Of a stretch of DNA of 31,139 nucleotides, positions 8,694-26,228 are shown piece after piece. The stretch comes from a virus: positions 1 to 31,139 of IMG/VR virus record IMGVR_UViG_3300044628_000125, one strand, 5' to 3'. The notes under the pieces are model-generated. The model ran no database searches. It had not been told where the DNA came from and saw only the letters and a program-made list of their open reading frames with translations. The translations under genes and the position numbers were made by a program. Within the stretch, counting starts at the first letter, position 1. Each line of letters begins with the position of its first letter.

Positions 8694-11007
8694 TTACGCA
8701 GGTGCAGCGCAACAACAGGGCATTGCCAACCTAGAGGCGGCACGCCTTACTGCGCGGCTTTCTAACCCTAATGTCATTACCCCGCTTGGTGGTCAGCGTG
8801 TGACCTACGGGCGACCGCAATTTAACCGCGCTGCGTATGACGCGGCGATGGCTAACTATCGTGCGCGTAACCCGCAGGCACCGGCTACCGGCGCACCGCA
8901 GGGCGCACCCTCAACCGTTGGCGTTGGTGGCGGTGCTGCCATGCCCACAACGGGCGGCGGTGGCGTGCAGATGGGCGGTGGCGGTATGTATGGCGGCGGC
9001 GTTGACCTCGGCGTTACGCCCGAACCTACGGCATCAAAGGCTGACGGTATGCCTGCTGCGCGGCGCGAGGCTCTGGGAATGGGCGATGACCGCGCATACA
9101 CGCAGGGCGGTCGAGCCGATTTCACCACGCTCCCTACCGGAGCGCAGGTTCCTACTGCGATGCTTATTGGCGGCGGTCGCTTTGATGCGTCCGGCATGGG
9201 GCCGGGACAGACGCAACGGTTTAATCAGGGCTACGGCGGCGGGGAGTATCTGGGCGATGTGATGCCCACCCGCGAGATGTTCACCGAAATGGTGGACTTG
9301 GACACCCCGACGATTGAGCAGTACCTGACCCCCGAGGCGCAGGCGACCCTCAAGGCGCAGCAGCGGGTGGAGTTGGCGCTTTCCGGCCTTGGTGAAAAGG
9401 CCATTGAGAATGTGCAAAAAATTTACGGCACGGATTTCACCCCGCAGGGGCTTCCGGCGCAGCAGTTCCAATTTGGCGGTTATGGCAACCTGCCGACCCT
9501 TCCCGAGTTGCAGGGTCGCGCACGCTCTGATGTGTCGGCGCTGCCGGTTAACTTCGGCCCCACGGCAGGACAGTACGGAATGGCTGCGGGTGGCCCACAA
9601 GGGTTAAACCTCGAAGGGTTCGACGCTTCTGGGTTGGGCATGGCAGCAGGTGGGCCAAGCGGGGGCGCGTTTGGTGCAGCGCAAGGCGGCGTAGGCGCTC
9701 CGTCGCTTCGAGGCCAATATGACCTGACAGGCGTGGGCGATGTTGCCCGAGCGCCGGGGGCTGCTGCGATGGCGCAGGGCGGGCCTATGGCTCCGGGGTT
9801 GCAAGGGCAGTTGGACACCTCGCAACTTGCCGCAATGCCGGTAAACGCTGGCATGACGGCGCAACAGGCCATCATGTCGCGCCTCGACCCGCAGTTGCAG
9901 CGCCAACGGTCGCAACTTGAGACACAGTTGGCGAATCAGGGCTTGGTGCGTGGCGGCGAGGCGTATGGCGCTGCCATCACCGAGCAACAACAGCAAGAAA
10001 ACGACCTGCGAACGCAGGCCGCGCTACAGGGCATTAGCCTTGATATGGCGGCACGCCAGCAGGGGTTAGGTGAGGCACAGACCCTTGGCGGCTTTGCCAA
10101 CCAAGCGGCTCTGGCGGGGTTTGGCGCGGGTCAACAGGCTACCGCAGCGCAAAACGCAGCAGCGCAGCAAAATTTCCAGAACGAATTGGCTAGGCAGGCT
10201 GCTGCAAACCAAGCGCAACAGCAAGCGTTTGGGCAACGGGCGCAGGCCGGTCAGTTTGGCAACGAGGCGCAATTGGCGGCGTTCCAAGCGGCGATGCAGA
10301 ATCAGGCTGCGGGTAATCAGGCCATCGGGCAAAACTTCGGTCAGGCGCAAGCCGCGCAGGCAATGGCAAATCAAGCGCAGCAGCAGAACTTCCAGCAGCG
10401 CATGGCGGCGGGTGAGTTTGGGCGGCAGGCTCAATTGTCGTCGTTCCAGACGCAGCAAGCGGCTCAAGACGCGGCTAACCGTGCCATCGCGCAGAACTTC
10501 CAACAGGGCTTGGGCGCGGCGGGTGCGTACAACGCTGCTGCCGGTCAGCAGTTTGGGCAGGAGATGGACATTGCTGGGTTGTATAACGCCTCGCTTGCCC
10601 AGAACCAACAGGCGGCATTGCAGCAAGCACAGGCACAAGCGGCGCTCCAAGCGCAGGGCTTCAACCAAGCGCAGGCGGCGGCAAACTTCCAGAACGCCCA
10701 GCGTCAGGCAGCGTTGCAAGAGCAGTTGGCGCTTCGGGCGCTCCCGCTTAACGAGGTCGCAGCCATCATGGGCGGCGCACAGGTGCAGATGCCGCAGTTC
10801 CAAGCCTATCAGGGCGCAGAGGTTGGGGCGGCTCCCATCTTCGGAGCGCAACAAGCGGCTGGTAACTTCGCGCAACAAAACTACCAGAATCAGATTGCAC
10901 GCCAAAACGCGCAGATGGGGCTGTACGGTAGCCTTGCTGGCATGGCTGGAACGGCTCTTGGTGGGCCGTTGGGTGGCGCAATTGGCAAGAGTATGTTTGG
11001 AGGTTAA
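8656..11007 (+). CDS. Gln/Ala-rich probable ejection (internal virion) protein
   Basis: 783 residues. The first 45 residues (starting GKKSPAPPPAPDYAGAAQQQG) are a Pro/Ala linker with Lys near the start; residues about 85-125 are Gly-rich. Residues about 415-700 are helical repeats dominated by Gln, Ala and Asn (NFQ, FGQ, QAAQ), roughly 40 residues per unit. The C-terminus (GLYGSLAGMAGTALGGPLGG) is Gly-rich and membrane-like. Long Gln/Ala helical proteins after the nozzle gene are usual for proteins injected with the DNA. The Gln demand is notable given the phage tRNA-Gln. Confidence 0.65.
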   Translation: MGKKSPAPPPAPDYAGAAQQQGIANLEAARLTARLSNPNVITPLGGQRVTYGRPQFNRAAYDAAMANYRARNPQAPATGAPQGAPSTVGVGGGAAMPTTGGGGVQMGGGGMYGGGVDLGVTPEPTASKADGMPAARREALGMGDDRAYTQGGRADFTTLPTGAQVPTAMLIGGGRFDASGMGPGQTQRFNQGYGGGEYLGDVMPTREMFTEMVDLDTPTIEQYLTPEAQATLKAQQRVELALSGLGEKAIENVQKIYGTDFTPQGLPAQQFQFGGYGNLPTLPELQGRARSDVSALPVNFGPTAGQYGMAAGGPQGLNLEGFDASGLGMAAGGPSGGAFGAAQGGVGAPSLRGQYDLTGVGDVARAPGAAAMAQGGPMAPGLQGQLDTSQLAAMPVNAGMTAQQAIMSRLDPQLQRQRSQLETQLANQGLVRGGEAYGAAITEQQQQENDLRTQAALQGISLDMAARQQGLGEAQTLGGFANQAALAGFGAGQQATAAQNAAAQQNFQNELARQAAANQAQQQAFGQRAQAGQFGNEAQLAAFQAAMQNQAAGNQAIGQNFGQAQAAQAMANQAQQQNFQQRMAAGEFGRQAQLSSFQTQQAAQDAANRAIAQNFQQGLGAAGAYNAAAGQQFGQEMDIAGLYNASLAQNQQAALQQAQAQAALQAQGFNQAQAAANFQNAQRQAALQEQLALRALPLNEVAAIMGGAQVQMPQFQAYQGAEVGAAPIFGAQQAAGNFAQQNYQNQIARQNAQMGLYGSLAGMAGTALGGPLGGAIGKSMFGG

Positions 11008-11289: not shown

Positions 11290-12763
11290 AACAGTCTCAA
11301 CCTTTGCGCTCCCAGACGAATACCAGCGGCAAGCCTCCGAGGCACGCCGTCGTCGCCGTATGGCAGAGATGTTGGCGCAGCAGGCGTACCAGCCGGGGGA
11401 CATCCAGAACGCCCCCATTCCTCGCGGAGCGCCCTTGGTGCAGGGTTTACAGGCGTTCCTGACCGCCCGTGCAGCACGCAAGGCAGATGAGGCTGAAGAA
11501 GGCGCAATGAAGGCGCAAACCCGTGAGGCACGGGATTTCCTTCGTGCGTTGACCGAGCCTGCCAAAACGATGACGATTGGCGAAGCCGCAATGCAAGACA
11601 TTGCACAAGCGGGAACGCCGGAACTGGTAGACGGTCGGTTGGAATACCGCAAGACCGCTATGCCTGCCCCAACTCCCGAAATGGTTCCGCAAGCAGGCCC
11701 ACAAGTGCGCTTGGGGCGCAGACCGGAAGACGACCAAGTGTATATGCCAACCGCAACGGGTCGAGAAACTGACCCGCAACGCATGGCTGCAATGCTTGCC
11801 AATCCTCAATACAAGGCTGAATTTACGCCCGAACAAAAGCGTGCGCTTGCCCTTGAGGGCGTGTTGACCAGTCAAAACCCGCTTGTGCAGAAAATTGGGC
11901 AGATGCAGTACGCGGCGATGCAGCCGAAGCAACTTGAGGTTGGCGCAATTGACCCGGGCGATTACACGCCGGAAAGTTTTACGAATTATCTAAACACAGG
12001 CAACTTTGGCGTGTTGAAGATGCGCGACCAGCCAACTGCCGCTCCAAAAACCGCCGCGCAAGACACATTGCAATGGAATCCTAAAACGCAAAAATGGGAA
12101 GATATTCCGGGAGCAGTTTCTCGCATAAGAGACATTGCTGAAGCAAGGCGCATCGTAGTCAACACAGGCGGCGGCGCTAGTAACGAACCATTGGAAAGAG
12201 TTGAGGGGCCGGATGGAAAACCAGTCCTTGTAAGACGTTCTGAAGCGGTTGGTAAAACGCCAGCACCAGCACCAAGTGAAAAACCAAAAATGCCGGGAAG
12301 TGTTGCAACCAATATTGCAGCACTTCAAACCAAATCAAAACAATTTGCCGCAGGTGTTCAAAGGGCTAATTATTTCCGCAATCTTATTGAAAACGATAAT
12401 TTGCCATTAAATATTTCATCTGGCATTCAATATTCTATACAACGAGCAACAGACCCAGAAGGAATTGCAAGAGATTCAAAAGGCAACAAACCTCCTTATG
12501 TTCTGTATTCAGAACTCAACAGATTTGTCACGGAACAAGTCAATACAATTTTGCAACTTGCAAAAGGAACGCAAACGGAAGGCGATGCTCTTCGCGCTCA
12601 AAAACAAATTCTTGATAATCCAAACAACAAAGCGATTGTTTTGTCTGCTCTTGAAGATTTGCAACGCAGTTTTACCAATGCTCAACAATTTGCAAATGAA
12701 GAAGCAGAGTTTTTGTTAAATAGATATGAAGGTTCAGATAAAGTTGAAGAGGTTGACTACTAA
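11279..12763 (+). CDS. Probable internal virion protein, charged and helical
   Basis: 494 residues from ATG 11279, chosen because GGGGAGGA lies 7 bp upstream; a GTG at 11252 would add nine residues but lacks a site. The N-terminal 100 residues are Arg/Ala-rich and helical (EARRRRRMAEMLAQQ). The middle is Pro-rich and probably flexible; the C-terminal 165 residues are helical (FRNLIENDNLPLNISSGIQY, FVTEQVNTILQLAKG). From about 12270 the DNA becomes clearly AT-richer, with A/T-ending codons, a likely mosaic joint. No enzymatic motif found. Confidence 0.6.
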   Translation: MAVKTVSTFALPDEYQRQASEARRRRRMAEMLAQQAYQPGDIQNAPIPRGAPLVQGLQAFLTARAARKADEAEEGAMKAQTREARDFLRALTEPAKTMTIGEAAMQDIAQAGTPELVDGRLEYRKTAMPAPTPEMVPQAGPQVRLGRRPEDDQVYMPTATGRETDPQRMAAMLANPQYKAEFTPEQKRALALEGVLTSQNPLVQKIGQMQYAAMQPKQLEVGAIDPGDYTPESFTNYLNTGNFGVLKMRDQPTAAPKTAAQDTLQWNPKTQKWEDIPGAVSRIRDIAEARRIVVNTGGGASNEPLERVEGPDGKPVLVRRSEAVGKTPAPAPSEKPKMPGSVATNIAALQTKSKQFAAGVQRANYFRNLIENDNLPLNISSGIQYSIQRATDPEGIARDSKGNKPPYVLYSELNRFVTEQVNTILQLAKGTQTEGDALRAQKQILDNPNNKAIVLSALEDLQRSFTNAQQFANEEAEFLLNRYEGSDKVEEVDY

Positions 12764-18205: not shown

Positions 18206-18540
18206 GTCTCGTAGCAGAACAGGCGGCGTTCCTGCTGGATGTCGCCAAACTCGTTAACAAAGCGACTGAACTGGGCTTTGTCGTCACGGGTGGTGAACTT
18301 GCCCGTACCCCGGAACAGCAGGCCATCTATGTAAAGACTGGTCGCTCCAAGACGATGAACAGCATCCACCTCAAGCGGTGCGCCATCGACTTGAATTTCT
18401 TCCGCGACGGCAAGTTGACCTACGACATCCCGGCTCTTACGCCGGTTGGTGAGTATTGGCAGAGCCTTAACCCCAAGAACCAATGGGGCGGGTTCTGGAA
18501 GTCGTTCAAGGATGTCCCGCACTTCGAACGCAGGGTGTGA
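18202..18540 (+). CDS. Endolysin, M15-family peptidoglycan peptidase
   Basis: 112 residues, GTG start in GTGA overlap with the holin. The zinc-site motif S-x-H-x(6)-D is seen as SIHLKRCAIDL (His56, Asp63), and the last ligand as DVPHFE (His107, with Asp104 before it). This is the M15 (VanY / L-Ala-D-Glu peptidase) arrangement, close in size to compact single-domain phage endolysins. There is no signal peptide, so it needs the holin. No spanin gene is evident nearby. Its stop codon is followed immediately by a tRNA gene on the other strand. Confidence 0.86.
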   Translation: MSLVAEQAAFLLDVAKLVNKATELGFVVTGGELARTPEQQAIYVKTGRSKTMNSIHLKRCAIDLNFFRDGKLTYDIPALTPVGEYWQSLNPKNQWGGFWKSFKDVPHFERRV

Positions 18541-18610
18541 TGGCGAGGGTGGATTCGAACCACCGTTAGCGGAGTCAAAGTCCGCTGTCCTGCCGCTAGA
18601 CGACTCGCCA
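18541..18610 (-). tRNA. tRNA-Gln (anticodon UUG)
   Basis: Read on the minus strand, a 7-bp acceptor stem TGGCGAG/CTCGCCA encloses a D arm (GTCT...GGAC), a 5-bp anticodon stem GCGGA/TCCGC with loop CTTTGAC (anticodon TTG), a short variable loop and a 5-bp T stem with loop TTCGAAT. The U1-A72 pair is characteristic of tRNA-Gln. No CCA is encoded, and the discriminator would be T at 18540 rather than the usual G, which is odd. It is the last element of the leftward operon. Confidence 0.9.
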
Positions 18611-18732: not shown

Positions 18733-19277
18733 AGTGCCTCCACGCTGTAGGACTGTGACGGTGATTTCCAATCTCGCGGCGGGTCGCCCGACAGGTGGCT
18801 CGGGTCAACCCAATGCAGTTTGTTGTTGGGGTAAGCGATGAGCGGCCCAGCCTCCAGCCGGACAATGTGGTGGTCTTTGCTCTGGTCGCTGACCTCCGAC
18901 CAGCCCCCGTTGTGCCAGAAGATGCTGAACAGGTAGACCCCCGGCCTCCACACTCCGTCCCTGCCTCTTGCGCGGACGCGGTGACCCCGCAGGAATTCCA
19001 TCTCCCGCACCTCGGCGTGGCGGCTAAAGGAGTCCCACCAGCAGGCGAGTTCTAAAGCCATTGGAGGGCATGGCTTCGACACAAGGGCATGGATAGGCAC
19101 CCTCGCCCATTGCGCCCCACAGGCCGCCATAACGCTAAACATGGGTACCCGTGCAGGTTCAGCGCGAAACCCGAAGATGGTGCAGGGGGTAAACTCCCCG
19201 CTGCCCGTCTGGTGGTCATATAGGAATTCGTTGCGGATGTACGCCGGGGTGTACGGCGTGTCTACCATGAAGGTCAC
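18696..19277 (-). CDS. Conserved hypothetical phage protein
   Basis: 193 residues. A GTG start at 19277 overlaps the preceding stop as GTGA; an ATG three codons later (19268) is an alternative. The sequence is rich in Trp, His, Pro and Arg (FSVMAACGAQWARVPIHALV; LACWWDSFSRH; VYLFSIFWHNGGWSEV), probably a compact mixed alpha/beta fold. I have no named family for it and no catalytic motif is evident. It belongs to the leftward recombination operon. Confidence 0.65.
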   Translation of the reverse strand: MTFMVDTPYTPAYIRNEFLYDHQTGSGEFTPCTIFGFRAEPARVPMFSVMAACGAQWARVPIHALVSKPCPPMALELACWWDSFSRHAEVREMEFLRGHRVRARGRDGVWRPGVYLFSIFWHNGGWSEVSDQSKDHHIVRLEAGPLIAYPNNKLHWVDPSHLSGDPPRDWKSPSQSYSVEALWSDGSSTGSAT

Positions 19278-19558
19278 AGTAGTCCCTCTCGGTTAAGTTG
19301 TGCGAGGGTTCGCGCCATGCCTTCGAGATGCAGCAGACGCACATAGTCCCGGTCAAGGTCGGTATGCGCTCGACGGTCGATAGCATCGTGGCACGCGCTA
19401 CAGGCCCATGCGCCAAGGATGTCGGGCGACTTCATGCCAATCCCAGATACCCCGGCAAGCCGGTAGTGCGCCAGCACGGTTGTCTCGGAGTTGTGGTTGC
19501 AGACCTCGGGGATACGCACCATGCAGCCTCGCCCTCGGGCTTCCTTACGCAGTTTCAT
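19274..19558 (-). CDS. YbcO / DUF1364-like putative nuclease
   Basis: 94 residues starting MKLRKEARGRGCMVRIPEVC and containing VLAHYR, then GAWACSACHDAIDRR. Cys12, Cys20, His31, Cys53, Cys56 and His57 form a likely metal-binding, HNH-like centre. This matches the DUF1364 family typified by prophage protein YbcO, a putative phage nuclease usually found near nin-region genes. Its start overlaps the ninB end by 14 bp. Activity is inferred from family and metal ligands. Confidence 0.8.
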   Translation of the reverse strand: MKLRKEARGRGCMVRIPEVCNHNSETTVLAHYRLAGVSGIGMKSPDILGAWACSACHDAIDRRAHTDLDRDYVRLLHLEGMARTLAQLNREGLL

Positions 19559-22299: not shown

Positions 22300-22491
22300 A
22301 TGGACATCCAAGCCGCCCTCGCAGTCGCAGGCTCTAAAGCCGCCCTCGCCCGCAAATTGGGAGTCAGCCGCCCTGCCGTCAGCAGGTGGGTCAAGGCAGG
22401 GAAACTGCCTGCTATGCGGGTCTGGCAATGGAAGGCGCTAGAAGCCGTCACCCCGCCGATTGCAGCCGATTCTACGCCTACCCCCGGCTGA
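22300..22491 (+). CDS. Cro-like helix-turn-helix regulator
   Basis: 63 residues. MDIQAALAVAGSKAALARKLG with VSRPAVSRWVKAGKLPAMRV gives a clear helix-turn-helix (about residues 12-34) of the Cro/YdaS type, followed by a short hydrophobic helix and a Pro-rich tail. It is transcribed divergently from the recombination operon across a 109-bp control region with likely operators. It probably represses one or both promoters and sets early-late timing. No separate CI-like repressor or integrase is visible, so nothing shows lysogeny. Confidence 0.78.
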   Translation: MDIQAALAVAGSKAALARKLGVSRPAVSRWVKAGKLPAMRVWQWKALEAVTPPIAADSTPTPG

Positions 22492-22549
22492 CCCCTACCC
22501 CTGCTGTAAAGCCGCTATAAGCGATTCTGCAACCCCCAGAAACGACAAA

Positions 22550-22568
22550 CCCCCGCACATGGCGGGGG
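22550..22568 (+). terminator. GC-rich hairpin after the Cro-like gene
   Basis: CCCCCGC and GCGGGGG form a perfect 7-bp stem with loop ACATG, 58 bp after the cro-like stop. It is placed like a terminator but is followed by CTTGACGGGG rather than a T-run, so intrinsic termination would be weak on the plus strand. It also marks the left edge of the structured RNA region. Confidence 0.35.
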
Positions 22569-22587
22569 CTTGACGGGGCGGGGGGAA

Positions 22588-22884
22588 TGCCCTTACGCTT
22601 CAGATGCGAAATGAGCGTGGGATGGACAGTACCGGACAACCCCGGACTAGTCAAGCCTACGCTGGACGCTCGGTGTAGGGAAAACTCCCATAGGCTCGTA
22701 GGGGAAGAACGCGGAGCCGCACTTAAATCCGTACAGAGGCCGCCGATTTACGGACACGCAGCGCAGAGTCGGGAAGCGTGTAGGCGAACGGGGAAACCCG
22801 TCAAAAGTTGCCGACAACGGATGGCTCCGTCAGTCATCTCCCGTGCGAGTGAACTAGGCCGAATTGCGCCTATTCACCGCACGG
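22588..22884 (+). ncRNA. Highly structured candidate non-coding RNA
   Basis: About 300 bases with many exact helices: CCC/ACGCU with AGCGU/GGG (22590-22621), CCGG/CCGG (22632-22645), CCTAC/GTAGG (22656-22678) or the competing AGCCTA/TAGGCT (22654-22696), TCCGTA/TACGGA (about 22728-22754), ACGGG-GAAA-CCCGT (22788-22801), ACGGA/TCCGT (22817-22830), and a 17-bp hairpin with two single-base bulges (22841-22884). A 127-codon reading frame (22587-22970) crosses it but shows no family or helix-sparing codon pattern. An ωRNA/HEARO-like element is my best guess, from remembered pattern only. Confidence 0.5.
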
Positions 22885-23014
22885 ATTCACCATCAGTCAT
22901 CGTGCTTTCAGAGACTCTTTCAAACCTCCTTGACCATCGAAAATCCTTGAATCCAAGAAGCCTGAACTAAAGTTGTTGCATTAACCTCCGTAAACAGTTA
23001 CGCTTGTCTTGTCT
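22885..23014. other. AT-richer spacer before the Mom-like cassette
   Basis: About 130 bp between the structured RNA and the first direct repeat, clearly richer in A and T than the RNA. It contains loose promoter-like pieces (TTGACC near 22930, TTGAAT near 22946) but no good -35/-10 pair at standard spacing, and no ORF with a ribosome-binding site. It probably carries the promoter of the Mom-like gene; I cannot place it. Confidence 0.4.
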
Positions 23015-23038: not shown

Positions 23039-23686
23039 ATGCTGTCAAATGCTCAACAAGCGTTAAATTTTTTTGAACAAAAAAATGAAGATAGCGAATA
23101 TGTGGTGAGAAAAATTGAAAATTCTAACACGAAGGAATTAATCCTAAATTTTCATTACGCTCGCCGTATGCCTTCAATTTCATTTGCATATGGATTGTTT
23201 TTGAATGGCGAATTAGAAGGAGTTGTTACTTTTGGACAACCTGCATCACCAAGAGTTTGCGATGGTATTGCAGGAAAAGAAAACGCTCGTTTGGTTTTGG
23301 AATTGAACAGATTGGTTTTGCGAAACAATCGTAAAAACGAAGCAAGTAGATTAGTTGGGCAAGCATTAAGAATGTTGCCTAAACCAAAAATTATTATTTC
23401 TTATGCAGATACGGCCCAAAAACATTTGGGAGTTGTATATCAAGCAACAAATTTCGACTATTACGGTTTGTCTGAAATTCGTACAGACAGGGTTTTTATA
23501 GATGGCACAAAACAAAAACATGGACGCCATGTGATTAGCACAGACATTGAAAATTTACACGAAAGAACAAAATTAGTTGAGCGCCCAAGAAAACATAGGT
23601 ATGTAAAAATAATTGCAAACAAAACAATTCAAAAACGATTAATGCAACAAATTAAATACGAAAAAAAGCGATACCCTAAAAATTGA
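23039..23686 (+). CDS. mom: Mom-like DNA adenine-modification protein
   Basis: 215 residues. NFHYARRMPSISFAYGLF (about 37-54), GVVTFGQPAS, LELNRLVLRNNRKNEASRLV (87-106), IIISYADTAQKHLGVVYQATN (about 118-138) and YYGLSEIRTD match the Mom family, GNAT-fold proteins typified by phage Mu Mom, which converts adenines in phage DNA to a carbamoylmethyl form that resists host restriction. The basic C-terminus suits DNA binding. The gene is far more AT-rich than its surroundings, and its 16-bp leader recurs just after its stop, so it looks like a recently acquired cassette. Confidence 0.8.
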   Translation: MLSNAQQALNFFEQKNEDSEYVVRKIENSNTKELILNFHYARRMPSISFAYGLFLNGELEGVVTFGQPASPRVCDGIAGKENARLVLELNRLVLRNNRKNEASRLVGQALRMLPKPKIIISYADTAQKHLGVVYQATNFDYYGLSEIRTDRVFIDGTKQKHGRHVISTDIENLHERTKLVERPRKHRYVKIIANKTIQKRLMQQIKYEKKRYPKN

Positions 23687-23704: not shown

Positions 23705-24229
23705 ATGCACGAACTAGACGAAGCCGCATGGGAGCGATGGGTTGCCTACCGCAAGGCCATTCGCAAGCCCATAAAGGAAGTCAGCGAACACGCGATGAAA
23801 CTTAAACTGTCGCGCTTTGGTGCTGACCAAGATGCCGTGGTCGAGCAGTCCATTGCTAACCAGTATCAGGGGTTGTTCGAGTTGAAGAAGGCCGCGCCCC
23901 GTCCGGGCGAGAAGGTCGAAAAGACCGACAAGCAACGCGCCGCAGATGTCGCCCGTCACGCTGAACAGGACGACTGGAACGCGAGACAATGGGGCAAGTT
24001 GGAACCGACCCCGCTGAACCGTCTCAAGTTGTGTGAGGCATATCTTGCTCGATTAACCATCAGCCCTGATGCGGATGCGATGGAGCGTCTGAAAGACTCA
24101 ACCGCCGCCGCGTTGCGGTCAGCGGATGCAGTAGAGGTGCTGGGTCACCCGCACCTGATGTCGATGGTTCGCCAACTGTTTGGTGAACGCGGTCTGAACA
24201 AACTCAAAAAGCGAGAGGTGCAATCGTGA
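23705..24229 (+). CDS. Putative replication-associated protein
   Basis: 174 residues. The N-terminal part WERWVAYRKAIRKPIKEVSE (about 9-28) followed by VVEQSIANQYQGLFELK (45-61) resembles the C-terminal region of phage replication initiators and helicase loaders, where this segment follows a DNA-binding domain that is missing here. The rest is charged and helical. GC content returns to the phage average. Its stop overlaps the next GTG. A role in replication is plausible but not shown. Confidence 0.55.
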   Translation: MHELDEAAWERWVAYRKAIRKPIKEVSEHAMKLKLSRFGADQDAVVEQSIANQYQGLFELKKAAPRPGEKVEKTDKQRAADVARHAEQDDWNARQWGKLEPTPLNRLKLCEAYLARLTISPDADAMERLKDSTAAALRSADAVEVLGHPHLMSMVRQLFGERGLNKLKKREVQS

Positions 24230-24591
24230 AGTTAACAACGAACGATATGTGGGATGCGTTGAAGGCGTACCAAGTACAGGCAAACGCCGACGGTCACGGC
24301 AGGTCGTGGCAAATAGCGTGCCAGACAAAAACCGTAGCCGACATGGACGCTGCAATCGAGGATTCGAGTGAACGGATGCAGGAAGCCGACCCCGATTACG
24401 AACGGATGCAGGAAACCGACACCGATTACGAGTTGTTTGGTGGTCGCCCGAACGACGATTACGAGCGGATATACACCGCAGGCGAGGCGATGATTAACGC
24501 GGTATATGTGATGCAATCGGATGTTTCGCAGCAGGAAAACATCACGATGGCGATTCGACTTATCGAAAAGGCGCAGGAGATAGGAACATGA
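24226..24591 (+). CDS. Hypothetical protein with internal 10-residue tandem repeat
   Basis: 121 residues, GTG start in GTGA overlap. A 10-residue unit of the form ERMQExDxDY occurs twice in a row (about residues 49-68) with a third partial DDYERIY copy after it. The flanks are helical and hydrophilic. No family recognised. It is part of a run of short overlapping accessory genes. Confidence 0.6.
   Translation: MKLTTNDMWDALKAYQVQANADGHGRSWQIACQTKTVADMDAAIEDSSERMQEADPDYERMQETDTDYELFGGRPNDDYERIYTAGEAMINAVYVMQSDVSQQENITMAIRLIEKAQEIGT
24370..24429 (+). repeat. Two tandem 30-bp repeats inside a coding gene
   Basis: Copies at 24370-24399 and 24400-24429 differ at two bases. The unit length is a multiple of three, so the gene stays in frame and copy number could vary without disrupting it. 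Confidence 0.9.
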
Positions 24592-24824
24592 GCATCAACG
24601 ACGGCGGCCCAGCGTTTCCGAGCACGATTCAGTATTTCCCCGACGACAAAAACGCGAACGAAGAGCAAGGCATGACCCTGCGCGACTGGTTCGCTACTCA
24701 CGCGACGGACGCTGACATCGCAGCAATTCAGACCCCGCCGCACGGCGCACAGAACATCACGCGGTACGAGGCGCGGTATATCCACGCCGACCAGATGCTC
24801 AAGGCGCGGGAGGTGAAGCCGTGA
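24588..24824 (+). CDS. Small conserved phage protein (INDGGPAFP / GMTLRDWFA type)
   Basis: 78 residues, ATGA overlap at the start. It has the common phage pattern INDGGPAFP near the N-terminus and GMTLRDWFATHA in the middle, with a helical C-terminus. Such proteins occur in the early regions of many phages and have no known function. Confidence 0.68.
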   Translation: MSINDGGPAFPSTIQYFPDDKNANEEQGMTLRDWFATHATDADIAAIQTPPHGAQNITRYEARYIHADQMLKAREVKP

Positions 24825-25084
24825 CACGCGAGGACATTATCCGATGGTCGCGGGAGGTCGAAGATTACGCCGACACTATCTACGAAAAAGGCGAATATCA
24901 CCCCGGATGGTTGGAAGTTCGTGACCAACGCTTCGCCGCCCTCGTCGCAGCAGCCGAGCGGGAGGCGTGTGCGAAGATTGCCGACAGCCAGATAAACAAC
25001 ACCGCCATCTTGTTGGTCAACCCCGGCAAATCTGCCGCAGCATGGGACATCGCTAACGCCATCCGTGCGAGGGGGAGCAAATGA
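24821..25084 (+). CDS. Small early protein with EREACAK / AIRARGSK motifs
   Basis: 87 residues from GTG 24821 in GTGA overlap. The C-terminal half AAAEREACAKIAD and ANAIRARGSK recurs in the next gene, with 24- and 28-base identical DNA stretches, so the two share a common module. Helical, hydrophilic; function unknown. Confidence 0.62.
   Translation: MTREDIIRWSREVEDYADTIYEKGEYHPGWLEVRDQRFAALVAAAEREACAKIADSQINNTAILLVNPGKSAAAWDIANAIRARGSK
24953..24976 (+). repeat. 24-bp repeat, first copy
   Basis: Identical to 25255-25278; encodes the shared AEREACAK stretch of two neighbouring genes. Copies are 302 bp apart. Confidence 0.9.
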
Positions 25085-25085
25085 C
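25058..25085 (+). repeat. 28-bp repeat, first copy
   Basis: Identical to 25363-25390; encodes the shared AIRARGSK end of one gene and the ATGA start of the next, so the repeat carries a complete gene junction with its GGGGGAG ribosome-binding site. Confidence 0.9.
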
Positions 25086-25389
25086 ACGCGACTACAACAT
25101 CAAGTGTGCCGTCAAGGACTGCGAAAATCACAGCAACGAAGGTCAGTTTGTTGGACTGTTGTGTTTACCCTGTCATAGATTTATAGCGGGAGACGGTGGA
25201 CTTTACTCACAAGCGTTTCGCAACAGTAGTGACATGATTAAACAAGCGGTCGAGGCCGAGCGGGAGGCGTGTGCGAAGGTATGCGAACAGCCTAGCGATG
25301 AAATCCAGATAACGGACGACATAAGTCAGCGTATTTACAAGGATGCGTTTGATTGCGCTGAAGCCATCCGTGCGAGGGGGAGCAAATGA
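25081..25389 (+). CDS. Small early protein with N-terminal Cys cluster
   Basis: 102 residues, ATGA overlap. Cys9, Cys14, Cys28, Cys31 and His32 (CAVKDC and CLPCH motifs) could form a zinc site. The C-terminal half, EREACAK then AIRARGSK, is shared with the upstream gene. This looks like a module swap in which a conserved tail carries different N-terminal domains. Function unknown. Confidence 0.6.
   Translation: MTRDYNIKCAVKDCENHSNEGQFVGLLCLPCHRFIAGDGGLYSQAFRNSSDMIKQAVEAEREACAKVCEQPSDEIQITDDISQRIYKDAFDCAEAIRARGSK
25255..25278 (+). repeat. 24-bp repeat, second copy
   Basis: Identical to 24953-24976, in the equivalent position of the neighbouring gene. Confidence 0.9.
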
Positions 25390-25390
25390 C
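25363..25390 (+). repeat. 28-bp repeat, second copy
   Basis: Identical to 25058-25085; covers the end of one gene and the start of the zinc-finger-like ORF, so the new gene inherits the same ribosome-binding site. Confidence 0.9.
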
Positions 25391-25562
25391 CCGCACCTGT
25401 AAGCAATGCGGTCAGAAGTTCTTCGGCGCGTCGAGCATTCTCCAGCATCGCAGCGGTGCTTGCGGTGGCGAGGAATTACTGAAGTCTCGCGGCTGGGTTA
25501 AGACCAAGGCAGGATGGGTATCACCACAACGCGCAGCGCACGACAAACGCCGTGGAGTTTGA
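25386..25562 (+). CDS. 58-residue C2HC zinc-finger-like protein
   Basis: ATG 25386 overlaps the previous stop as ATGA and has GGGGGAG close upstream; TGA at 25560-25562 lies inside the next gene. The N-terminus CKQCGQKFFGASSILQHRSG continues to a fourth Cys (Cys5, Cys8, His21, Cys26), a zinc-finger pattern. The rest is basic with two Trp. Probably a small DNA-binding or accessory protein for the nuclease downstream; function inferred. Confidence 0.65.
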   Translation: MTRTCKQCGQKFFGASSILQHRSGACGGEELLKSRGWVKTKAGWVSPQRAAHDKRRGV

Positions 25563-25932
25563 GCGGCTGATGAAGAACCGGGATGCGCCGCATATTGATT
25601 ACGGCGCATTCCTCGGGTTGCTGCCGAACAACCCTAAAGCCTGCCCGTGCAATATTGACGGCATCATCGAGCGAAAGGGAAAGTTCCTTGTACTCGAATG
25701 GAAGCGTCAGGGTGAGGGGATGTCCGAAGGGCTGCGCCGCACCTTGCAGGCACTTGCAGGGACTACGGGTTTTCAAGTTTGGGTGGTGCGCGGCGATACG
25801 GACAACGGGCTACGCATCGGACGGTTTTACTCGGTGCCACCTTTCGGCAAACCAAAGTTGTTAGGCGAAGGCGTGGATGAGTTCATTGCGGTGTACCGGC
25901 TGTGGTACGAGTACGCCGACGGGTCTTTCTGA
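25552..25932 (+). CDS. PD-(D/E)XK nuclease-like protein
   Basis: 126 residues from GTG 25552, overlapping the zinc-finger-like ORF by 11 bp. NIDGIIERKGKFLVLEWKRQ (Asp36; Glu49-x-Lys51) gives the core of a PD-(D/E)XK active site, followed by a helix (LRRTLQALAG) and a strand (FQVWVVRGD) as in Holliday-junction-resolvase-like folds. It directly precedes a VRR-NUC nuclease. Substrate unknown. Confidence 0.6.
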   Translation: MEFERLMKNRDAPHIDYGAFLGLLPNNPKACPCNIDGIIERKGKFLVLEWKRQGEGMSEGLRRTLQALAGTTGFQVWVVRGDTDNGLRIGRFYSVPPFGKPKLLGEGVDEFIAVYRLWYEYADGSF

Positions 25933-26228
25933 TGCGCTACGCCGCACGCCGGGATGCCAACGATGCCGCCATTACCGCAGCCGTAAGAGCGGCAGGGTTT
26001 ACGGTGTACGACCTCGGGCTGGCAGGGCAGGGCGTACCCGATAAACTGGTCACCGCCCCCGGCTTTGCTGCCTTCCTCGAAATCAAGACCCCAACGGGCA
26101 AACTGCGGAAAGGGCAGGAACGCTTCCAGATGGCGTTTGAGCCGCTTGGGATGTGGTACCTAGCCCGAGACCCTGCCGAAACGGTTGCGTGGCTTCAGGC
26201 GCGACTGACGACGACCCAGAAGCCTTGA
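25932..26228 (+). CDS. VRR-NUC domain nuclease
   Basis: 98 residues from ATG 25932, sharing one base with the previous TGA; an upstream ATG at 25902 lies within that gene. ARRDANDAAITAAVRAAGF, then GQGVPDKLV (Pro36-Asp37), FLEIKTPTGKL (Glu50-x-Lys52) and GQERF match stand-alone phage VRR-NUC proteins, restriction-fold nucleases thought to resolve branched DNA in replication and recombination. Its end overlaps the opposite-strand methyltransferase-like gene by 34 bp. Confidence 0.85.
   Translation: MRYAARRDANDAAITAAVRAAGFTVYDLGLAGQGVPDKLVTAPGFAAFLEIKTPTGKLRKGQERFQMAFEPLGMWYLARDPAETVAWLQARLTTTQKP

What the first reader, a model, noticed from the sequence alone, without database searches (positions are those of the whole stretch)
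22588..22884. Dense structured RNA between the Cro-like and Mom-like genes
Seven or more exact helices, a GAAA tetraloop on a 5-bp stem, and a 17-bp bulged hairpin fill about 300 bp that no convincing protein explains. It is among the longest non-protein-coding stretches here. The pattern reminds me of HEARO/IscB-associated ωRNA, but no IscB-like ORF is present, so it might be a stand-alone or repurposed guide-RNA relative, or an unnamed phage RNA. The helices are seen in sequence; the family link is a memory-based guess.
Basis: partly seen in the sequence, partly recalled or inferred. Interest (0 to 1): 0.75.

Follow-up and report, generated by a model that had tools for sequence, protein, structure and literature searches.

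The report
New structured RNA leading phage operon
The stretch encodes a previously unlisted, intricately folded RNA, shared by well over a hundred environmental phage contigs and apparently always placed at the head of the gene block that leads to replication and DNA packaging, where it probably steers transcription of that block.

Summary
Fifty diverse homologues from IMG/VR support 31 base pairs in six helices, including two pseudoknots: 98.6% of cells paired, 244 compensatory cells against 67 in shuffles, slid controls at most 42%. G-U outnumbers A-C 17:2, so the + strand is the RNA. No Rfam family fits; HEARO gives no match even at E<=10, and no IscB is found. The reading frame is not conserved.

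Each copy carries its own promoter (TTGACG-N17/18-TANNNT), a leftward-terminator-like hairpin before it, and a 3' module with two 11-nt repeats (R1, R2) that change together and compete for one pairing arm. One copy per phage, always upstream of TerL on the same strand, while terminase and capsid genes diverge or differ altogether.

Best reading: a cis-acting leader RNA at the head of the replication/packaging operon, folding as it is made and probably modifying RNA polymerase, as HK022 put RNA does, without being a put homologue. The fold is strongly shown; the mechanism is inferred. HEARO is not supported; "unnamed phage RNA" is.

The parts
22300..22491 (+). Cro/YdaS-like HTH gene upstream (context)
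   Evidence: Pfam YdaS_toxin 4.2e-9, P22_Cro 1.8e-6; similar small HTH genes precede the RNA in other contigs
22538..22549 (+). conserved box AGAAACGACAAA just before the hairpin
   Evidence: near-invariant in the 86-sequence alignment and
22550..22568 (+). G/C hairpin upstream of the promoter; read leftward it resembles an intrinsic terminator (22572-22546, minus strand)
   Evidence: terminator scan; stem kept with changed letters in homologues
22570..22575 (+). -35 element TTGACG
   Evidence: TTGACG (rarely TTGCGT) in homologues
22576..22593 (+). promoter spacer (18 nt) holding an inverted repeat (GGGC...GCCC)
   Evidence: 40 distinct spacers: mean longest perfect stem 4.6 nt against 2.8 in shuffles (largest shuffled mean 3.1)
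22594..22599 (+). -10 element TACGCT (TANNNT in the family)
   Evidence: 78 aligned promoters keep 17 or 18 nt spacing; inner letters vary (TACGCT, TACTCT, TATTTT, TATCCT, TAACCT). The sequences were selected with the pattern TTGACG/TTGCGT-N17/18-TANNNT
22600..22901 (+). the structured RNA; 5' end inferred at about 22606, 3' end of conservation 22901
   Evidence: covariation; CM R2 matches 22721-22901 with 170 bits
22614..22663 (+). P1 domain: AGCGTGGG 22614-22621 with CCTACGCT 22656-22663; conserved GTCAA at 22650-22654
   Evidence: sequence; covariation of the matching columns 58-95 (canonical 0.97)
22728..22754 (+). P5 (22728-22733 with 22749-22754)
   Evidence: 6/6 pairs with double changes, 99.7% paired
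22742..22786 (+). PK1 pseudoknot: loop of P5 (22742-22745) with 22783-22786 (register shifted by one base in the window lineage)
   Evidence: 3 of 4 pairs with double changes, 97.4% paired
22755..22780 (+). P6 (22755-22759 with 22776-22780)
   Evidence: 100% paired, 2 pairs with double changes
22768..22815 (+). P7 (22768-22772 with 22811-22815), H-type pseudoknot with P6
   Evidence: 100% paired, 4 of 5 pairs with double changes
22788..22801 (+). variable hairpin with GAAA loop
   Evidence: 4 of 4 counted pairs with double changes; length varies in homologues
22817..22838 (+). unit A: S1 (ACGGA), arm A (GATGGCT), repeat R1 (CCGTCAGTCATC, 22827-22838); A and R1 form hairpin P8
   Evidence: P8 changes together in variants (GUG/CAC, GUGAG/CUCAC)
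22841..22884 (+). P9, long terminal hairpin (S2 arm 22841-22847 with S3 arm 22878-22884)
   Evidence: 100% paired, 3 pairs with double changes
22890..22901 (+). repeat R2 (CCATCAGTCATC), end of the conserved RNA
   Evidence: R2 changes together with R1 in several types
23039..23686 (+). Mom-family gene, AT-rich, between the RNA and the operon; absent at this place in most relatives
   Evidence: Pfam Mom 2.2e-37; L002 and L008 have the O-like gene next to the RNA
23705..24229 (+). O-like replication protein, the usual gene downstream of the RNA
   Evidence: phrog_678 replication initiation O-like 2e-14

Best explanation
A new family of structured phage RNA that acts in cis. Sigma-70 RNA polymerase starts at its dedicated promoter (22570-22599) and transcribes the RNA first. 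The nascent RNA folds into a double-pseudoknot core (P5, PK1, P6, P7) followed by a 3' module in which S1 or S3 can pair with S2, and R1 or R2 can pair with arm A. I infer that the core docks on RNA polymerase (or binds a factor) and that the order of strand exchange in the 3' module sets the complex as it enters the operon for replication, terminase and structural genes, most likely making it read through terminators or pauses, as HK022 put RNA does. Shown here: the fold, the strand, the promoter pattern, the matched repeats, the operon position. Inferred: the switch, the polymerase target, antitermination.
For: Fold and strand: (G-U 17, A-C 2). Own promoter at a fixed place before the RNA. 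No intrinsic terminator between the RNA and the first gene, so it is a leader rather than a closed small RNA. The first downstream gene varies (O-like, MGDE family, methylase, Mom, small ORF) while the RNA does not, so it serves the operon rather than one gene. In the 20 records (window included) with a recognisable TerL, TerL is on the same strand; in 19 of them it lies 2.3-5.7 kb downstream, worked out from the coordinates, and the twentieth (G021) has the RNA cut at the contig end. One copy per phage. Phage antitermination proteins Q and Antiterm reach their cut-offs in none of 26 records. Competing helices S1/S2/S3 and A/R1/R2 are the usual logic of an attenuator-type switch. Precedent: HK022 put RNAs act without a protein, and putR lies ~270 nt downstream of the PR start (PMC9378689).
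Against: No + strand terminators beyond chance were seen in the 7.4 kb downstream (1 on +), so nothing obvious needs to be read through, though Rho-dependent sites cannot be seen. put RNAs are ~70 nt and come in two copies; this is ~300 nt and single. Two records (G028, G029) hold sub-threshold Q-like proteins. R1 and R2 also match in the loop part that arm A does not need, which a simple strand exchange does not explain. No expression data.
Confidence: 0.4

Rival explanations
1. A trans-acting RNA: cut out of the transcript and working as a free RNA or RNP (decoy of a host factor, scaffold, or homo-oligomer in which R2 of one molecule pairs with arm A of the next).
For: Large, highly conserved, pseudoknotted core with one copy per phage; the repeats S1=S3 and R1=R2 would allow domain-swapped pairing between copies. 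The ornate RNAs GOLLD, ROOL and OLE form homo-oligomers (abstract of PMC12286853).
Against: No terminator at the 3' end, constant placement directly before the operon on the same strand, no shared protein partner identified.
Confidence: 0.25
2. A ligand- or protein-sensing leader (riboswitch-like) controlling the first gene or the operon, with the P5-P7 core as the sensor and the 3' module as expression platform.
For: Core with high sequence conservation followed by competing helices next to a coding region.
Against: First genes differ; no Rfam riboswitch matches; distance to the start codon varies from about 10 to 140 nt.
Confidence: 0.15
3. A replication-origin RNA: the transcript primes or opens the origin for the O-like protein encoded next to it.
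For: The usual downstream gene matches only the C-terminal part of O-like initiators (positions 222-309 of 346 in phrog_678); matched direct repeats resemble iterons.
Against: GC skew shows no sharp switch here (weak test); no AT-rich unwinding stretch in relatives whose gene starts ~25 nt after R2; several relatives have another gene there; compensatory pairing shows the constraint is on RNA.
Confidence: 0.1
4. A HEARO/omega-RNA or other transposon guide RNA that has lost its nuclease.
For: Sub-threshold Transposase-2 hits at one offset (19.1 bits, E 0.0035 per genome in G016).
Against: HEARO no match at E<=10; no IscB over cut-off (no positive control) and no IS110 recombinase (control positive); no variable guide segment: the 5' part varies but stays paired.
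Confidence: 0.04
5. A DNA element (operator cluster or recombination site), not an RNA.
For: Promoter spacer dyads and direct repeats could be protein sites.
Against: Pseudoknotted compensatory pairs over 180 nt, G-U wobbles on one strand 17:2.
Confidence: 0.03

Closest known systems
HK022 put RNA (putL/putR)
   Same: A phage RNA near the start of an operon; putR lies after PR as this RNA lies after a Cro-like gene; a cis-acting structured RNA without a dedicated protein (PMC9378689)
   Different: put is ~70 nt, two stem-loops, two copies per phage; this is ~300 nt, pseudoknotted, single copy, with its own promoter and matched repeats; no homology shown
HEARO / IscB omega-RNA (RF02033)
   Same: Large structured RNA with pseudoknot in mobile DNA
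   Different: No match to the HEARO model; no IscB; placed before phage replication genes
Transposase-2 RNA (RF03015)
   Same: Shares the string GAAGCGCGAA before a short hairpin and an AGCGG string after it
   Different: 19.1 bits against a 42.7-bit gathering score; pairing partners differ; no transposase found nearby
GOLLD, ROOL, OLE
   Same: Large ornate RNAs, GOLLD also lake-derived
   Different: No Rfam match; different size and place
lambda pR' leader / Q antitermination
   Same: A promoter and leader at the head of the operon that leads to terminase
   Different: Q is a protein; lambda-type Q and Antiterm families reach their cut-offs in none of these records

Membership tests
HEARO / omega-RNA | match to the RF02033 covariance model | tested here: not met
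   no match at E<=10 in 14 records incl. the window
HEARO / omega-RNA | adjacent IscB/IsrB gene (RRXRR domain PF14239) | tested here: inconclusive
   over cut-off in 0 of 35 records, but the control genomes held no positive and IsrB/TnpB were not searched; no such gene among the window ORFs that were scanned
HEARO / omega-RNA | guide segment that varies freely | tested here: not met
   5' part keeps paired columns, no free variable segment seen
Transposase-2 RF03015 | score at or above 42.7 bits | tested here: not met
   best 19.1 bits
put RNA | two-stem ~70-nt RNA, two copies per genome | tested here: not met
   ~300 nt, one copy per record
put RNA | antitermination through RNAP beta' zinc-binding domain | not testable with these tools
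   needs transcription assays
Any Rfam 15 family incl. group I/II introns, tmRNA, riboswitches, GOLLD, ROOL, OLE | gathering score reached | tested here: not met
   only tRNA found in the window and in 14 other loci
IS110 bridge RNA | IS110 recombinase next to the RNA | tested here: not met
   PF01548 absent in 23 records, control positive
Structured RNA family (as such) | compensatory base changes beyond chance | tested here: met
Protein-coding gene | conserved frame | tested here: not met
   no Pfam match

The most novel reading that the evidence does not exclude
A new class of phage RNA, ~300 nt with a double pseudoknot and two self-matching repeats, that by itself converts RNA polymerase (or sets the operon) for expression of replication, packaging and structural genes in many environmental phages, replacing the N/Q protein logic with RNA and using a built-in strand-exchange device.
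Probability: 0.3. Interest if true: 0.9.

Novelty: categorically new. Interest (0 to 1): 0.75.

Why it matters
It is a widespread RNA family with strong covariation support that is in neither Rfam 15 nor, as far as the searched literature shows, in print, and it was not found by blastn in the 50,697 phage records or 72,556 plasmid records searched. It outlasts terminase and capsid genes, which points to a core job. If it acts on RNA polymerase it would be a second, much more elaborate RNA-only route to operon control in phages; whatever it does, the matched repeats and competing helices give direct, testable predictions. I rate it categorically new as an RNA family; if the put-like mechanism were proved, its function would be a new variant of a known kind.

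Tried and rejected
Rfam at gathering and E-value thresholds: nothing above threshold for this RNA. blastn in phages and plasmids: no real relative. Genome contigs pattern scan: one hit, L141, a chance match inside what looks like coding sequence. Pattern was mistyped and found nothing; corrected. CM R1 had one helix off by a column and was replaced by R2. 'Guide in the 5' domain pairing with R1/R2' rejected: L151/L160 share their 5' part and core with CCGTCAGTCAT types (L047, L107) but carry another repeat. IscB, IS110 and tyrosine integrase searched for, none over cut-off. Foldseek of the O-like protein gave nothing usable (pTM 0.46). A long-range GATGG:CCATC pairing was considered and dropped, because variants such as L148 do not keep it.

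Full report
WHAT WAS CHECKED. The stretch folds better than shuffles (z -4.24), and the minus strand also scores (z -3.43), so folding alone could not decide. Rfam gave nothing in the window except a tRNA far away, and only chance-level matches at E up to 10.

HOMOLOGUES. A 19-base string from the GAAA hairpin found divergent relatives in IMG/VR (66-81% identical blocks). A few of these are chance hits in genes (visible). Blastn found no relative in the 50,697 phage records or 72,556 plasmid records.

STRUCTURE. A G-test with background correction on 54 non-redundant sequences showed clusters of covarying columns, including two pseudoknots. On a 50-sequence alignment I named 31 pairs: P5, PK1 (loop of P5 with a segment after P6), P6, P7 (H-type pseudoknot with P6), the GAAA hairpin, and P9. 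98.6% of cells pair; 22 pairs have double changes; 244 double-change cells against 67 in shuffles, 0/500; sliding the partner by 1-3 columns drops pairing to 21-42%. The alignment was sequence-based (MAFFT), not fitted to the structure. G-U pairs outnumber A-C 17 to 2, so the + strand is the RNA. The reading frame is not conserved.

PROMOTER. Before the RNA lies TTGACG, 17-18 nt, TANNNT, with invariant T, A and T of the -10 hexamer and variable inner letters. The sequences were chosen with that pattern, so its universality is not an independent count; the listing, made without it, shows the same arrangement. The spacer holds an inverted repeat that changes from phage to phage (mean stem 4.6 nt against 2.8 shuffled). 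Upstream is a G/C hairpin that reads as a leftward terminator after a conserved AAACGACAAA box. The generic promoter scan did not list this promoter.

3' MODULE. Variants show that the end of the RNA is a pair of units: S1 + arm A + R1, then hairpin P9 (S2/S3), then R2. R1 and R2 are near-identical and change together: CCGTCAGTCAT/CCATCAGTCAT, CCGAAGGTCAT/CCAAAGGTCAT, CCGACAGTCAT/CCAACAGTCAT, CCAACGGTCAT twice, CCAAAGGTCAC/CCAAAGGTCAT, CCGAAAGGCTC/CCGAAGGCTC. Arm A pairs with the 3' half of R (with a G-U kept in nearly all types). S1 resembles S3, and both can pair with S2. These are two linked three-strand exchanges. The loop half of R also matches between copies, and no intramolecular partner was found for it; that remains unexplained.

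CONTEXT. The window is a 31-kb virus record. Many relatives have a Cro/YdaS-like gene upstream. Downstream, the first gene is an O-like replication protein, a shorter MGDE-type protein that looks like its C-terminal half, a methylase, a small ORF, or here a Mom gene. The RNA occurs once per record (34 of 35 records have it; a few carry a second, very weak hit). TerL relatives exist in 20 of 26 records (31-100% identical, window included), always on the RNA's strand; in 19 they lie 2.3-5.7 kb downstream by my arithmetic on the coordinates. The major head protein is recognisable in only 10 of 26. So the RNA is shared by phages whose virion genes differ. No tyrosine integrase over cut-off.

MECHANISM. 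The RNA is the first thing transcribed from its own promoter, has no terminator before the first gene, and always heads the same kind of operon; hence a cis-acting leader is the economical reading. Because the first gene varies, the target is more likely the polymerase than one start codon. The known precedent is HK022 put (PMC9378689, read). Against it: few visible + strand terminators downstream and two records with Q-like sub-threshold hits. I give the leader/antitermination reading 0.4, trans action 0.25, a sensor 0.15, an origin RNA 0.10.

MEMBERSHIP. HEARO: tested, not met. Transposase-2: recurrent sub-threshold hits at one place, not met. IS110 bridge RNA: no recombinase. put: works-like is possible, membership not met on size and copy number. 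The literature searches found no description of this RNA, but the library is incomplete and the 2017 survey of 224 candidate RNAs was not held.

CERTAINTY. That this is a conserved structured RNA: about 0.97. That it is absent from Rfam 15: shown. That it acts in cis: about 0.6. That it is an antiterminator: about 0.35.

Noticed in passing
window 23039-23686: The AT-rich Mom gene sits between the RNA and the O-like gene only in the window and its near-identical contigs (L003, L004, L006); other relatives lack it there, so it looks like a recent insertion.
   Followed up: partly
window 22570-22593 and relatives: The promoter spacer carries an inverted repeat with a G-rich middle whose sequence differs between phages; it could be an operator that tracks each phage's repressor, or an RNA hairpin in read-through transcripts.
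   Followed up: partly
window 22594-22663: Inner letters of the -10 box covary with the P1 arms (columns 28-47, canonical 1.00), and the -35 TTGAC is complementary to the near-invariant GTCAA at 22650-22654; a transcript entering from upstream might misfold P1.
   Followed up: no
L144 (MW202691) 8830-9190: A P22-like podovirus from Manatee Spring has a strongly folding gap (z -4.8) between a small upstream gene and its O-like gene, with P6/P7-like arms by eye, but no match to model R2.
   Followed up: partly
G028 19033-19338, G029 12139-12474: Sub-threshold Q-like antitermination proteins in two RNA-bearing records that lack a TerL relative of the window's type.
   Followed up: no
L136 2279-2488: A ~34-nt tandem duplication of the P5 hairpin inside one RNA copy; real or an assembly artefact.
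   Followed up: no
window 18539-18610 (-): tRNA-Gln (TTG) between the lysis genes and the leftward gene block.
   Followed up: no
window 24226-26228: Several small unknown genes and a Holliday-junction-resolvase-like protein between the RNA and terminase; the MGDE family downstream of the RNA in relatives has no known fold.
   Followed up: partly
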